From: a virus
Strand: one strand, 5' to 3'
DNA length: 26,910 nt
Virus record (IMG/VR): IMGVR_UViG_3300037296_000120
Span: 1 to 26,910 of that record
Made by a program: the position numbers and the translations under genes. Numbering within the stretch: the stretch's first letter is position 1; every line of letters begins with the position of its first letter. The notes under the pieces are model-generated. The model made no database searches. It had not been told where the DNA came from and was given only the letters and a program-made list of their open reading frames with translations. Of this stretch, positions 9,280 to 25,490 are shown in pieces.

Positions 9280-9405
9280 TTAAATCTTCTTGTCCGAACC
9301 GTCACGCGGTCCACAAAGCCTATTCATCTACGCCCGCGAAACTGGCCTGCCCATCACGTCTTTTGCGCGTTCCAGCACATGCCCCGGCGGCAGTGAGCTA
9401 TACAT
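9280..9405 (-). other. Two tiny linked frames, possibly decayed gene
   Basis: Leftward from 9405 a frame of 25 codons (MYSSLPPGHVLERAKDVMGR at the start) stops at TAG 9330-9328, directly followed by an ATG opening 15 codons (MNRLCGPRDGSDKKI) to 9280. The first ATG overlaps the GIY-YIG stop and no other gene fills this part. They may be two peptides in a coupled chain or one gene split by a mutation; I cannot tell which. Confidence 0.25.
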
Positions 9406-9865
9406 ATGCGGCACCCTCACCCTCGACAAAGACAACATCGCCAGCGCGGGCTACTCTTTTCGCAAGGTCGATCTTGTAAGGCGTTGCAGGCGTAAAGCTA
9501 TGGTCAGCTCCCACTGCTTCGGCGTAGGCATTGCTGCCCACGGCATAACGGACCCAAGGCGCAGCAGGGCCAACCTCGACTGCACATGGCATAGGGCCTC
9601 GCGTTTTTGGCATATATTGCTGCACTGGTGCGGGGCGCATATGGACCTTGTTGTGTGCTGGCCTTTCGCGCCTAATCGCGGCCTTCTCTGCCTCTAACGC
9701 TGCCTCTCGTGTGGGGTGCGTCTCGATGGTTACGGGTGCTATATCACACGCCCAATCCGACGAGTTCATATGAGCCTTTAACCGTGTGACAGCGGAAAAT
9801 GAAATGCCAACATAAAGCAGAGCGCCATCAGCATCGAAGTGGCGATAAAGATTAGTCCTTTGCAT
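9398..9865 (-). CDS. GIY-YIG domain protein
   Basis: A 155-residue protein with an N-terminal GIY-YIG nuclease-type domain at residues 5-75: LYRHFDADGALLYVGIS supplies the paired motifs (Tyr7 and Tyr18 with Gly20), RLKAH carries Arg28, AALEAEKAAI carries the metal-binding Glu58, and RPAHN ends at Asn72. It most resembles the compact single-domain GIY-YIG proteins in phages. Residues 80-155 are an unassigned extension. The ATG at 9865 has AAGGAG upstream and overlaps the RHH gene by 14 bases; an earlier in-frame ATG lies inside that gene. It may cut DNA or be a homing-type or anti-host nuclease. Confidence 0.8.
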   Translation of the reverse strand: MQRTNLYRHFDADGALLYVGISFSAVTRLKAHMNSSDWACDIAPVTIETHPTREAALEAEKAAIRRERPAHNKVHMRPAPVQQYMPKTRGPMPCAVEVGPAAPWVRYAVGSNAYAEAVGADHSFTPATPYKIDLAKRVARAGDVVFVEGEGAAYV

Positions 9866-9998
9866 TGACTTGGCGCTCCTTCTCAAGAGCCGCCGTCTTG
9901 CAATATTGCGGCACAGTCTGGCCCAGCCGGTCGGCGGCTTTCGCCAGCCGCTCATACTGTTCATCGGTCCAGTTAATTACGGATCGTTTTTGCGTCAT
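9852..9998 (-). CDS. Ribbon-helix-helix-like small regulator (48 aa)
   Basis: A 48-residue protein whose pattern, a short basic strand (QKRSVINW), a first helix (TDEQYERLAKAADRLG), a turn (QTVP) and a second helix (QYCKTAALEKE), is that of an Arc/CopG-type ribbon-helix-helix DNA-binding protein, which works as a dimer. A GAGGTG ribosome binding site precedes the ATG. It is the first gene of its operon and next to a divergent control region, a usual place for an autoregulating repressor. The assignment rests on pattern only. Confidence 0.65.
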   Translation of the reverse strand: MTQKRSVINWTDEQYERLAKAADRLGQTVPQYCKTAALEKERQVNAKD

Positions 9999-11229: not shown

Positions 11230-12024
11230 TTATACGCGGGGGTCGTGGTTGTCGGCCAGCAGGCGCAGGGCGTCCACTAGAGCGATTAGGCGTGCCTCTG
11301 CGGCCTTGTCGTCGTCAGAGGCAACGGGAGGCGATGCGGGGGCTGCGAGGGGCGATGGCAGGGCCGTGAGGGCCTTATGCATGGCGGCACGGGTGTTTGG
11401 CCCGCTGATACCATCCACGGCCAGCCCTGCGGCGCGTTGGAAGCCGCGCACGTCGCCTGCCTCATAGCCCAGCAACACCAGCGCGGCGCGGTCATAGAGG
11501 CGGTAGCGGTCAGCAATGCCGTTGGTCCCGCCGTTAATGGTGCGCGATACCATCTCGTTATTGCCTACATCGGCGTAGCGGTTGATGTTGCGGGTGGACC
11601 AATACCACAGCGGCCCCAGCCCTTCCCACGGGTCTGTGTTCATCAGTTCCGGCGATACAGTGAAGTCAGGAACATGCATGCCGGGGAACGTCTCAACGCA
11701 CCAGCGATAGAACGCCGTGGTGTTGCCCCGTCCGGTGATCTGCATGGCGGTATAGCCGCGAAACTTGGACCCGTCGCCGGGTTGCGTGTTGCCCAGATCG
11801 GCGCGGCCCTCGTAGCGGCGTTGCGCGGAAGATGGACCCCAGACCTCACGATCATAGCGGAACAGTGCGCTTTCGTGCGCAAGCTGCGCGATGTATTGCG
11901 CAACCCTGGCCGGGGTATCCATGCCGACCGTTGGTCCGTAGCTTTCCAGCGCCGTCAGCACTGACCGCATGTTGTCATTGATGGGCCGGTCACATATTGC
12001 GACCAGTTGCGATGCTGTAAGCAT
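11230..12024 (-). CDS. Endolysin: GH19-type muramidase/chitinase with peptidoglycan-binding domain
   Basis: A 264-residue lysis enzyme. Residues about 1-185 form a glycoside hydrolase family 19 domain, with the catalytic Glu51 in AQLAHESALF, a second acidic residue at Glu60, the RYEGRADLGNTQPGDG stretch and KFRGYTAMQITGRGNT, all hallmarks of phage GH19 endolysins that cut the peptidoglycan sugar backbone. Residues 192-218 (VRGFQRAAGLAVDGISGP) are a peptidoglycan-binding repeat, placed C-terminal to the catalytic domain. The last 45 residues are Ala/Pro-rich then helical. There is no signal peptide, so release needs a holin. AGGAG lies 8 bases before the ATG. Confidence 0.9.
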   Translation of the reverse strand: MLTASQLVAICDRPINDNMRSVLTALESYGPTVGMDTPARVAQYIAQLAHESALFRYDREVWGPSSAQRRYEGRADLGNTQPGDGSKFRGYTAMQITGRGNTTAFYRWCVETFPGMHVPDFTVSPELMNTDPWEGLGPLWYWSTRNINRYADVGNNEMVSRTINGGTNGIADRYRLYDRAALVLLGYEAGDVRGFQRAAGLAVDGISGPNTRAAMHKALTALPSPLAAPASPPVASDDDKAAEARLIALVDALRLLADNHDPRV

Positions 12025-12053: not shown

Positions 12054-13121
12054 TTATGCAATGCGAAAGCGGACGGACGGCGGCGGCGTGTTTCCAAGCC
12101 TTTCGCCCGCGTCAAACGTCCACGATGCAGGCGCTGCGGGGGCAGCACCGTATGGGACTGCCTTGCGCAGTATCGTGTATTGCGCGGTGCTGTTCGCGTT
12201 TACGATGCCGAGGTTCTTCGCGCTGCTAGTTGAAATGCCGCGTATTCTGGCCACGCTGCTGTGGTGAAACCCCATCCAATACTGCCGCCCCGCATCTAGT
12301 GTCAGGGGATCGCTGTGGAACTTGTACCCAGTGCTTGACATGTCCAGATCTTCCGCCCCGTAATACAGGAGATCTGAGGGCCAGCCATTTGCATCGCTGC
12401 CATAAACAGCAACCCGGCCAAAGCCGCCCGCCGCTGTAGTCGTCACAGAAACGCCGACCTGATCAGTCGTGAATGCCTGCGACGTGTAGAATGGGCCAAG
12501 GTCTAGCTGGCCTGCTACGCCAGTTAGCAAAGATGAAGACCCGCCAGTAAAGGCAGCATCATAGTATTGGCCGGAGATATAGCTCCCGACGTTAGGGCTG
12601 GCAAAGTTGCTGATTGTGGTGATGCGGTCGTTTAGTACTGGCCTGCCGCCGCGTGCATCTATCACTTCTTGCGGTGTTCCGCCTGCGCCCCCCGTTCCGT
12701 CAGCACCTGCTGGGCCAGTCTCACCCTGTATCCCTTGCGGGCCTTGCTCCCCTTGCGGTCCGGCGTCCCCAGTGTCGCCTTTAACCCCCTGAATGCCGTC
12801 AGCGCCATCGGCCCCGTCGTTTCCATTTGATCCGTCTGCGCCGGGGGGGCCAATGTCACCTTTCGGGCCTTGGACGCCATCGGCCCCGTCGCTACCATCA
12901 ACGCCCTGCGGGCCCTGCGCGCCAGTCTCGCCTTGAACCCCCTGCGGGCCCTCAATAACTTCACCCGTCCCACCCATGCCTGCCGGGCCTTGTGGGCCGG
13001 GGGGTCCAACTATGGCGGCAACTGCACTAGACCCACCGCGTGAAACTGCGGTCATCGTGCCAACGGTCATCCCGAACCAAGTGAACGCCTGTCTCGGCGG
13101 GTCAAACCATTCCACAATCAT
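12054..13121 (-). CDS. Collagen-like tail fibre / surface protein
   Basis: A 355-residue protein. Residues 1-38 form a leading domain with MIVEWFDPPRQAFTWFG; residues about 39-148 are Gly-X-Y collagen-like repeats (GPPGPQGPAGMGG, GPQGVQGETGAQG and so on) that should trimerise into a rod; residues 150-355 form a globular, beta-rich tip with no recognised family. Such proteins are usually phage fibres or head/tail decorations. It follows a small beta-type gene with which it overlaps by ATGA and precedes the endolysin. Because the repeat is rich in GC triplets, alternative frames are also open here. Confidence 0.8.
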   Translation of the reverse strand: MIVEWFDPPRQAFTWFGMTVGTMTAVSRGGSSAVAAIVGPPGPQGPAGMGGTGEVIEGPQGVQGETGAQGPQGVDGSDGADGVQGPKGDIGPPGADGSNGNDGADGADGIQGVKGDTGDAGPQGEQGPQGIQGETGPAGADGTGGAGGTPQEVIDARGGRPVLNDRITTISNFASPNVGSYISGQYYDAAFTGGSSSLLTGVAGQLDLGPFYTSQAFTTDQVGVSVTTTAAGGFGRVAVYGSDANGWPSDLLYYGAEDLDMSSTGYKFHSDPLTLDAGRQYWMGFHHSSVARIRGISTSSAKNLGIVNANSTAQYTILRKAVPYGAAPAAPASWTFDAGERLGNTPPPSVRFRIA

Positions 13122-23657: not shown

Positions 23658-24173
23658 TTAGACCTTCATGCGTTCGAGCATTTCTTCAAACTCCGCCTCA
23701 GTTGGCGGCTGGACCTTTTCACCTCCGAAGGCGCGGCACATGTGGATGAAGTCCTGATATGACATTTCGCGCAGCGCAGACGGCGCAACGCCTAACTTGG
23801 CAAATGACGCCAGCAACTCGCCTAGATTGTATGGTGTGGCAGGGTCGCCCGCTGGCTTAGTCTCGTCGGGTTCAATGCCGACCATGACCGAAATCAGGAT
23901 TTCTAAGGCCAATTCGACACGCTCCACCATCGGAACTGTGTCGAAGCGGTCTTTCATCAGCCGATCAGCTTCAACCGACGACATCCCACCGCCGATCAAG
24001 CCAAGCCTGATCGTATGGTATACATCACGGGCGAAATAGCATTGCTTTGCCAGCCGCAGGTAGATTTCACCAAAACCGACTTTTCCGCAGGCTTCTTCCA
24101 GATCCATCAGCTTGCCAAAGGGCATGTTGAACGGGCGATCTTCGCCCGCCCATTGCTTGATGATTTCCGGCAT
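23658..24173 (-). CDS. Tail assembly chaperone (GTA gp10-like)
   Basis: A 171-residue protein. Residues 1-105 match the GTA gp10-type chaperone family: FGKLMDLEEACGKVGFGEIY, followed by DVYHTIRLGLIGGGMSSVEA. Residues 110-171 (GELLASFAKLGVAPSALREM then SYQDFIHMCRAFGGEK) resemble the short second chaperone that usually follows as a separate gene (GAxP...F...), so the two may be joined here. The ATG at 24173 shares one base with the tail tube stop; an in-frame GTG at 24191 lies inside that gene. It coats and delivers the tape measure protein. Confidence 0.75.
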   Translation of the reverse strand: MPEIIKQWAGEDRPFNMPFGKLMDLEEACGKVGFGEIYLRLAKQCYFARDVYHTIRLGLIGGGMSSVEADRLMKDRFDTVPMVERVELALEILISVMVGIEPDETKPAGDPATPYNLGELLASFAKLGVAPSALREMSYQDFIHMCRAFGGEKVQPPTEAEFEEMLERMKV

Positions 24174-24622
24174 TAGGTCGCCGCCGTCCACACGCGCTGA
24201 CCTGCGCCCATGATCGAGGCGCTGAACGTCGCGGTGCTCTTGCCTTCTGCGCCGAACTCCAGCGTGTCCAGAAACGCGGGTAGCGTGTAGAATCCGCCGC
24301 CGTCAGCAGTTGATTCATCAAACATGATCTTGATGTTTTTCTTCGTGGCGTCATCGGCCCATGCACGCCACTGCGTCAGGCTATCGCCCTTCGCCACGCG
24401 GCCAGAAATGCTGACGGTCGTGTCTTGGCTTTCCAGATAACGCACGATCAGCGCAGGCAGGCCAAGCGGGTCGTCGCAGTCAAGCACGACATCTTCGCCC
24501 AGGTTGTTCTTGAGGGTCACGTTGCGAGCATTCGCGCCGCAGGGGAAAGCGAATGTTTCGGTTGGCGTAGCGCCATCACCTAACAAAATGATTAGCTTGT
24601 CGGATAGATCGGGTGCAGCCAT
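24173..24622 (-). CDS. Major tail tube protein
   Basis: A 149-residue protein with the beta-rich layout of siphovirus tail tube proteins: KLIILLGDGATPTETFAFPC at the N-terminus, central VSISGRVAKGDSLTQWRAWA, and FYTLPAFLDTLEFGAEGKST followed by ATFSASIMGAGQRVW at the end, the typical E-G-x-x-x-x-x-x-F/S-G-tube closing pattern. AAGGA precedes the ATG at 24622; an earlier in-frame start would overlap the next gene. Its stop overlaps the chaperone ATG. Confidence 0.78.
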   Translation of the reverse strand: MAAPDLSDKLIILLGDGATPTETFAFPCGANARNVTLKNNLGEDVVLDCDDPLGLPALIVRYLESQDTTVSISGRVAKGDSLTQWRAWADDATKKNIKIMFDESTADGGGFYTLPAFLDTLEFGAEGKSTATFSASIMGAGQRVWTAAT

Positions 24623-24626
24623 GGGC

Positions 24627-24785
24627 CTATTCCTTCTTTTCGGGTTCAACGGGGGTGGCGGAGCCGCTGGCAATCAATGCCTCTGCGGTTGCTTTCGGCA
24701 GGTTGTGTTCTCCACCCGCGCGAAATGCTTGAATGACTGCCGGTTTTACCCGATGGTCAACGTCTCGAATGATCCTCACCTTCAT
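24627..24785 (-). CDS. Hypothetical small protein (52 aa)
   Basis: A 52-residue protein (MKVRIIRDVDHRVKPAVIQA start, EPEKKE end) with a strong ribosome binding site, GGAGG, five bases before the ATG. Small proteins of this kind, carrying a RxxxxA..F..G pattern and a Glu/Lys tail, often sit just upstream of tail tube genes, but their role is unknown. The start codon is only 11 bases from the divergent start of the + strand gene at 24797. Confidence 0.6.
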   Translation of the reverse strand: MKVRIIRDVDHRVKPAVIQAFRAGGEHNLPKATAEALIASGSATPVEPEKKE

Positions 24786-24796
24786 GGGAACCTCCA

Positions 24797-25099
24797 ATGT
24801 TAAGAATTGCTGTTGTGCTGACCGGCCTTGCGTTGCCGTCCGTCGCGCTTGCCGACACATGCGAAGAAATCCACGCCTCAATTCAGGCTGACTTTGACGC
24901 GGCGTCCGATGATGCTGCCCGATTGATCCAGCGGCGTTTTGACCTATTCAGCCTTGCATCGAACCAAACAGACGGCCAATTAGAAGCCGTCGCGCGTCAG
25001 GCCGGGGAACAGGCCGCAGATATGATCTTGCAAGCCGAAATATCCCGCCGCAACGAACGCGCCGCAATTGATATGCTCTGCCCGATCAGATTGCCTTAA
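24797..25099 (+). CDS. Predicted exported protein, reverse-oriented accessory gene (moron)
   Basis: A 100-residue protein. Residues 1-19 form a clear Sec signal peptide (MLRIAVVLTGLALPSVALA) with an ALA cleavage site before DTCEE. The mature part of about 81 residues is mostly helical (AARLIQRRFDLFSLA, then QLEAVARQAGEQAADMILQA) with two cysteines (Cys22 and Cys95) that could pair in the periplasm. It is the only + strand gene within 15 kb of leftward late genes and fills a 300-base gap in which no leftward gene exists. The ribosome binding site is weak (GGGAA). This layout is that of a moron; envelope modification or superinfection exclusion are possible jobs, neither shown. Confidence 0.75.
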   Translation: MLRIAVVLTGLALPSVALADTCEEIHASIQADFDAASDDAARLIQRRFDLFSLASNQTDGQLEAVARQAGEQAADMILQAEISRRNERAAIDMLCPIRLP

Positions 25100-25490
25100 T
25101 CGCCTTGTTCATGGCACGGGTGATCCGGTTGCGGACGCTCTTGCGCTTGGCCCGCCACACGGGGAAAAAGAACGGGTTGGCAGGCATGTTGACCGTGCCG
25201 AACTCCTGAAACCGCGCATAGAACGCCTTGCCGCCGCCCGCGTAGATCGTGATGCGCAAAGTCGCGTATTCATTGCCCGCGACCGCTCCCAGCGTGAGAC
25301 TGCCCTTCGGCGCATCGCCCCACGTCCAGCCGATAGAACCCGCCAGATCGCCTGTCACATGCGGCGCAACCTGATACATCTGCGCGACGATTTCCTCTGC
25401 GATTTCCTCCATCGCATTGCGGACTTCCATTGCGACACGTTCGGGGATCGCGCCCCAGCGGCGCTGGAACGCGGCCAAGCCCTCAACCAT
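25086..25490 (-). CDS. HK97 gp10-like head-tail connector / tail completion protein
   Basis: A 134-residue protein with the family pattern: helix EVRNAMEEIAEEIVAQMYQV, then APHVTGDLAGSIG (P-x-x-TGDL, residues 43-49), beta strands, then FYARFQEFGTVNMPANPFFF (EFGT at 96-99 and PANPFFFPVWRA). It acts at the neck or tail end in tail attachment. It overlaps the DUF3168 gene by 8 bases. The small C-terminal basic helix (KRKSVRNRITRAMNKAIKAI) is typical. Confidence 0.85.
   Translation of the reverse strand: MVEGLAAFQRRWGAIPERVAMEVRNAMEEIAEEIVAQMYQVAPHVTGDLAGSIGWTWGDAPKGSLTLGAVAGNEYATLRITIYAGGGKAFYARFQEFGTVNMPANPFFFPVWRAKRKSVRNRITRAMNKAIKAI

What the first reader, a model, noticed from the sequence alone, without database searches (positions are those of the whole stretch)
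24797..25099. Lone + strand exported-protein gene inserted in the late operon
A gene with a clean Sec signal peptide and a small two-Cys mature domain lies against the direction of about 20 late genes, in a gap of 300 bases with no leftward gene. This is the classic moron setting, seen for lysogenic conversion, superinfection exclusion or envelope-altering genes. I cannot place it in any family. The start codons of it and its divergent neighbour are 11 bases apart, so their expression is probably linked.
Basis: partly seen in the sequence, partly recalled or inferred. Interest (0 to 1): 0.65.

Follow-up and report, generated by a model that had tools for sequence, protein, structure and literature searches.

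The report
Swappable exported-protein slot in phage late genes
The small backward gene is real and sits in a fixed slot in the tail-gene block of phages of Rhodobacteraceae and other Alphaproteobacteria, where related phages carry either nothing or one of many unrelated small proteins predicted to be exported to the cell envelope, most likely something the sleeping phage uses to alter or protect its host; its function is untested.

Summary
ORF 24797-25099 (+) fills a 300-bp gap between a tail-completion gene and a 52-codon late gene, has an export signal and two mature Cys, and is conserved at 89% amino-acid identity in one relative, with dN/dS 0.21 and 20 of 30 changes at third positions. No Pfam, PHROG, NCBIfam, PADLOC or isolated-phage match was found. 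In related phages the two flanking late genes abut (14 empty sites) or are separated by exactly one antisense ORF (15 intact, 1 broken). Fifteen of 16 intact slot proteins, counting one phage without the right-hand gene, pass a crude export test, against 173 of 1683 other antisense ORFs. They fall into about 12 types with no mutual similarity. Seven types share one plan: signal peptide, Cys at residue 22-31, Cys 63-73 residues later near the C-terminus, and (modelled for two types) a predicted two-helix hairpin. Start-to-start spacing with the divergent late gene is 10-14 nt where measurable. A second antisense slot before the tape-measure gene exchanges a lipoprotein family with this one. Moron is supported. 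Superinfection exclusion is the best functional guess, about 0.45; the promoter and expression are not shown.

The parts
24797..25099 (+). Slot gene: 100-aa exported protein, signal peptide about 1-19, mature Cys 22 and 95, predicted helical hairpin
   Evidence: 89% aa identical homologue in L001
24627..24785 (-). Left flank of slot: 52-aa conserved late protein MKVRI..., divergent start 11 bp from the slot gene
   Evidence: weak match to phrog_2616; recognised by profile in the other loci with the same gene order
25086..25490 (-). Right flank of slot: HK97 gp10-like tail-completion/neck protein, convergent, 14-bp overlap with slot gene 3' end
   Evidence: phrog_5 6e-19; PF04883 2e-8
24786..24796 (.). 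11-bp head-to-head spacer; GGAGG on the minus strand for the late gene, weaker GGGA for the slot gene
   Evidence: sequence; spacing 10-14 bp in unrelated occupants
24173..24631 (-). Major tail (tube) protein, next late gene downstream
   Evidence: phrog_13196 1e-16, PF06199
6972..7988 (+). Tyrosine integrase, the evidence that the phage is temperate
   Evidence: PF00589 1.7e-14

Best explanation
The ORF is a moron: a small prophage gene held in a fixed antisense slot between the tail-completion gene and a 52-codon late gene of temperate siphophages of Rhodobacteraceae and other Alphaproteobacteria. Its product is exported by Sec, loses its signal peptide, and folds in the periplasm as a two-helix hairpin stapled by a disulfide between Cys22 and Cys95. 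It is probably made in the lysogen, when the late operon is off. There it most likely acts as a superinfection-exclusion protein that meets incoming phage parts in the envelope, for example the tape-measure or tail-tip conduit. Shown: the gene, its frame conservation, empty and occupied sites, replacement by unrelated proteins with export signals, the conserved two-Cys plan. Inferred: export, disulfide, expression in the lysogen, exclusion function.
For: Purifying selection on the + frame, dN/dS 0.21. Fourteen empty sites and 15 intact antisense occupants on the same gene order. 15 of 16 slot proteins (L010 included) pass the export rule vs 173 of 1683 control antisense ORFs, and 10 of 16 have the two-Cys plan vs 10 of 1683. 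Cys22 and Cys95 columns are invariant across ten very divergent members, with Cys-Cys spacing 63-73. AF2 gives a helical hairpin for the window and L122 members. Integrase present; L091 and L086 lie on bacterial contigs of 286 and 489 kb, so probably prophages. A lipoprotein family occurs in both this slot (L005) and the tape-measure slot (L171, L145, L141). Published precedents: HK97 gp15 and TP-J34 Ltp exclude phages at DNA injection and are escaped by tail tube or tape-measure changes (PMC10883804).
Against: No promoter found and no transcription data, so expression in the lysogen is unproven. No match to any known exclusion or defence protein. The exclusion role rests on setting and analogy only. 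AF2 confidence is moderate (pLDDT 73, pTM 0.47), and AF2 readily makes hairpins from helical sequences with thin alignments. The slot also takes lipoproteins and an N-terminally anchored protein, so one shared function is not required.
Confidence: 0.45

Rival explanations
1. Lysogenic-conversion protein unrelated to phage exclusion: an envelope protein that helps the lysogen under stress or in competition.
For: Same moron evidence; slot occupants are structurally mixed (hairpins, lipoproteins, N-anchored), as expected if many useful envelope proteins are accepted.
Against: No similarity to any host stress or envelope family. No close homologue in GTDB genomes by peptide scan; only the Jannaschia self-hit in two draws of 395 family members.
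Confidence: 0.27
2. Lytic-phase envelope protein, for example a periplasmic regulator of lysis (RI-like antiholin) or lysozyme inhibitor.
For: Small exported helical proteins with a disulfide play such roles in other phages (general knowledge, not tested here).
Against: It lies antisense to the late operon, far from the window's probable endolysin (PG-binding domain, 11230-12024), and related phages lack it altogether (14 empty sites).
Confidence: 0.1
3. The antisense RNA, not the protein, matters: transcription through the slot covers the late gene's ribosome site and dampens late genes in the lysogen.
For: Head-to-head starts 10-14 bp apart with overlapping ribosome sites in unrelated occupants.
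Against: The protein frame is under purifying selection, export signals are kept across unrelated types, and phages without the insert do without it.
Confidence: 0.08
4. Chance or decaying antisense ORF with no function.
For: Antisense ORFs of this size are common in G+C-rich phages (1683 controls); no promoter found.
Against: dN/dS 0.21 with third-position bias, empty sites, 15 intact occupants with export signals, invariant Cys pair.
Confidence: 0.03

Closest known systems
Phage HK97 gp15 superinfection exclusion moron
   Same: Small prophage moron of a long-tailed phage; [quoted passage not shown] Its location within the tail genes is recalled, not checked.
   Different: gp15 is predicted to be an inner-membrane protein; the window protein is predicted soluble periplasmic with a Cys pair. 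No family match of the window protein.
Streptococcus phage TP-J34 Ltp superinfection exclusion lipoprotein
   Same: Exported superinfection exclusion protein of a temperate siphophage, escaped by tape-measure changes (PMC10883804; PMC3952083).
   Different: Ltp is a lipoprotein of a Gram-positive host; the window protein has no lipobox. No family match.
Antisense hypothetical genes before the tape-measure gene in Mesorhizobium phage vB_MseS-P1 (gp43) and Rhizobium phage RHph_TM3_3_14B (EVB67_082)
   Same: Antisense small exported or membrane protein genes in the late operon of phages with a related tail-completion protein.
   Different: Different slot (tail chaperone/tape measure) and unrelated sequences.

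Membership tests
Phage moron | Extra gene between two genes that are adjacent in related phages | tested here: met
   14 empty and 15 intact occupied slots on the same gene order; close pairs L207/L203 and L119/L118
Phage moron | Own promoter and terminator | tested here: inconclusive
   No sigma-70-like promoter and terminator-like sites at chance level; alphaproteobacterial promoters are poorly covered by that scan
Phage moron | Base composition differs from neighbours | tested here: not met
   G+C 0.563 vs 0.594 for the window, a small difference; a weak, often absent criterion
Phage moron | Expressed from the prophage | not testable with these tools
   needs RNA-seq of a lysogen
Superinfection exclusion proteins (HK97 gp15, Ltp, SieA types) | Sequence membership in a described exclusion or defence family | tested here: not met
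   no PADLOC, PHROG, Pfam or NCBIfam match
Superinfection exclusion proteins (HK97 gp15, Ltp, SieA types) | Located in the cell envelope | tested here: inconclusive
   export signal predicted by a rule only
Superinfection exclusion proteins (HK97 gp15, Ltp, SieA types) | Blocks a superinfecting phage | not testable with these tools
   needs a plaque assay
Ltp-type exclusion lipoproteins | Lipobox at the cleavage site | tested here: not met
   ALA|DTC has no lipobox; other slot occupants L137, L117 and L005 do have lipobox-like motifs

The most novel reading that the evidence does not exclude
The seven two-Cys types are one fast-diverging fold family of periplasmic exclusion proteins, a disulfide-stapled hairpin aimed at incoming tail or tape-measure parts. 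It is carried in a dedicated antisense plug-in slot in which any exported ORF starting 10-14 bp from the late gene can use a promoter resident in that late gene.
Probability: 0.2. Interest if true: 0.7.

Novelty: new variant of a known kind. Interest (0 to 1): 0.5.

Why it matters
It turns a single orphan ORF into a mapped accessory slot. Anyone can look between the tail-completion gene and the MK(I/V)(R/K)I gene, or before the tape-measure gene, of these phages and read off small envelope proteins that the phages exchange. That gives a candidate list of superinfection exclusion or lysogenic-conversion proteins in Rhodobacteraceae and Rhizobiales phages, with natural empty-site controls for testing.

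Tried and rejected
Family searches in Pfam, PHROGs, NCBIfam, PADLOC and PDB sequences gave nothing credible. Foldseek against PDB and viral models gave only generic helical hairpins, no E below 0.001. tblastn to isolated phages found no homologue of the window, L119 or L122 proteins. GTDB peptide scan found none; profile searches in two draws of 395 family members found only the Jannaschia prophage already known, and such a mixed profile is insensitive. I considered a promoter inside the late gene signalled by low synonymous change, but synonymous sites are near saturation and the late gene shows the same lower divergence in empty and occupied pairs, so this is not evidence. A recurrent TTG-N17-GATGGT-like pattern upstream (read) follows from conserved codons of the late gene and was dropped. 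A minus-strand gene in the gap was rejected: all three minus frames carry stops.

Full report
The ORF at 24797-25099 is real. It runs from ATG to TAA on the + strand and encodes 100 aa. It occupies the 300-bp gap between two leftward late genes, a 52-codon gene starting at 24785 and a HK97 gp10-like tail-completion gene ending at 25086. The + frame in the gap has no stop while the other five frames have one to five. The product begins MLRIAVVLTGLALPSVALA, followed by a mature part of about 81 residues with Cys22 and Cys95. No SignalP was available, so export rests on a simple rule.

The frame is conserved. One IMG/VR contig (L001) carries an 89% identical protein at the same place. Over 300 bp, 30 bases differ, 20 of them at third codon positions (binomial p 2e-4), and dN/dS is 0.21, against 0.07 for the tail-completion gene and 0.02 for the tail tube. 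So it is a protein gene under purifying selection that changes faster than its neighbours.

Loci were collected by the tail-completion protein and by the 52-codon protein. Those with the same gene order as the window were compared. In 14 phages the two late genes abut (13 with a gap of about 30 bp or less, one with 71 bp). In 15 they are separated by one intact antisense ORF that fills the gap, and in one (L008) by a broken one. No sense-strand gene was found in an occupied gap of this gene order. Close pairs differ by presence: L207 occupied vs L203 and L204 empty (gp10 83-87%, tube 87-91% aa identity), and L119 occupied vs L118 empty (gp10 81%, tube 82%). That is the signature of a moron slot.

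The occupants are different genes. By phmmer they fall into eleven groups without detectable mutual similarity, twelve with L010, a phage in which the 52-codon gene was not recognised. Fifteen of these 16 pass the same crude signal-peptide rule, against 173 of 1683 antisense ORFs of 80-200 aa elsewhere in the same loci (Fisher p about 4e-14, not corrected for relatedness). The one that fails the rule, L117, shows a hydrophobic stretch and a lipobox-like LAAC by eye. Ten of 16 have a Cys early in the mature part and one within eight residues of the end, against 10 of 1683 controls. In these ten, which are seven groups including the window, the two Cys lie at residues 22-31 and 88-97, 63-73 apart, and they are the only invariant columns in a ten-sequence alignment. 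AF2 models of the window and L122 members are two-helix hairpins, with the Cys near the start of the mature part of helix 1 and the end of helix 2 (pLDDT 73 and 71). The remaining groups are lipobox proteins (L137, L117, L005), a secreted protein with a C-terminal Cys pair (L221, L214) and an N-terminally anchored protein (L207).

The geometry is constant. Where the late gene's start could be read, the divergent starts are 10-14 bp apart in unrelated occupants, so the ribosome sites overlap; in L122 the junction is the palindrome GGAGGCCTCC, a Shine-Dalgarno sequence on both strands. This was not shown to link expression. The window has no canonical promoter or terminator here.

There is a second antisense slot between the tail chaperone and tape-measure genes. 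Of 99 loci scanned, 19 carry an antisense signal-bearing ORF there; not every one need be a gene, but several families recur, and two isolated phages have such genes annotated. A lipoprotein family is found in both slots: L005 here, L171, L145 and L141 there (profile E 2e-12 in a 21-sequence set). Exchange between slots fits mobile accessory genes.

Hosts, where named, are mostly Rhodobacteraceae and Rhizobiales. The window is a 26.9-kb virus record with an integrase, so a temperate life style is likely.

Function is not shown. The best-supported model is a periplasmic protein made by the prophage. Among such morons of long-tailed phages, superinfection exclusion at DNA injection has precedents in HK97 gp15 and TP-J34 Ltp (PMC10883804, PMC3952083), and fast change under a kept architecture fits an arms race. 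I give this about 0.45, general lysogenic conversion 0.27, and lysis-related or antisense-RNA roles about 0.1 each. The kind of system is known; the slot, its constant head-to-head geometry and the two-Cys protein group were not found described in the libraries and papers searched here.

Noticed in passing
loci L166, L176, L076, L108, L190, L175, L132, L171, L145, L141, L113, L114 and others, tail chaperone/tape-measure junction: A second antisense slot with several unrelated small exported or membrane protein families, including TYRLVHAIGN...TCLPES proteins with two Cys.
   Followed up: partly
L042 (about -753 to -406 from the tail-completion gene end), L059: Antisense exported proteins with a conserved C...LKAP.TAEFP...YVDAQNGFGA motif in a third place upstream of the tail-completion gene.
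   Followed up: no
L001 3293-4468, at window 25896/25899: About 1.2 kb insertion in L001 relative to the window, between tail terminator and head closure genes, with three small ORFs on the late strand.
   Followed up: no
L008, downstream of 4707: Slot gene appears broken: signal peptide and C-terminal part lie in different frames.
   Followed up: partly
window 12054-13121 (-): Collagen-like Gly-Pro-Gln repeat protein among the late genes, probably fibre or virion decoration.
   Followed up: no
window 9398-9964 (-): GIY-YIG nuclease-domain ORF (PF01541, E 5e-5) in the region between integrase and lysis genes.
   Followed up: no
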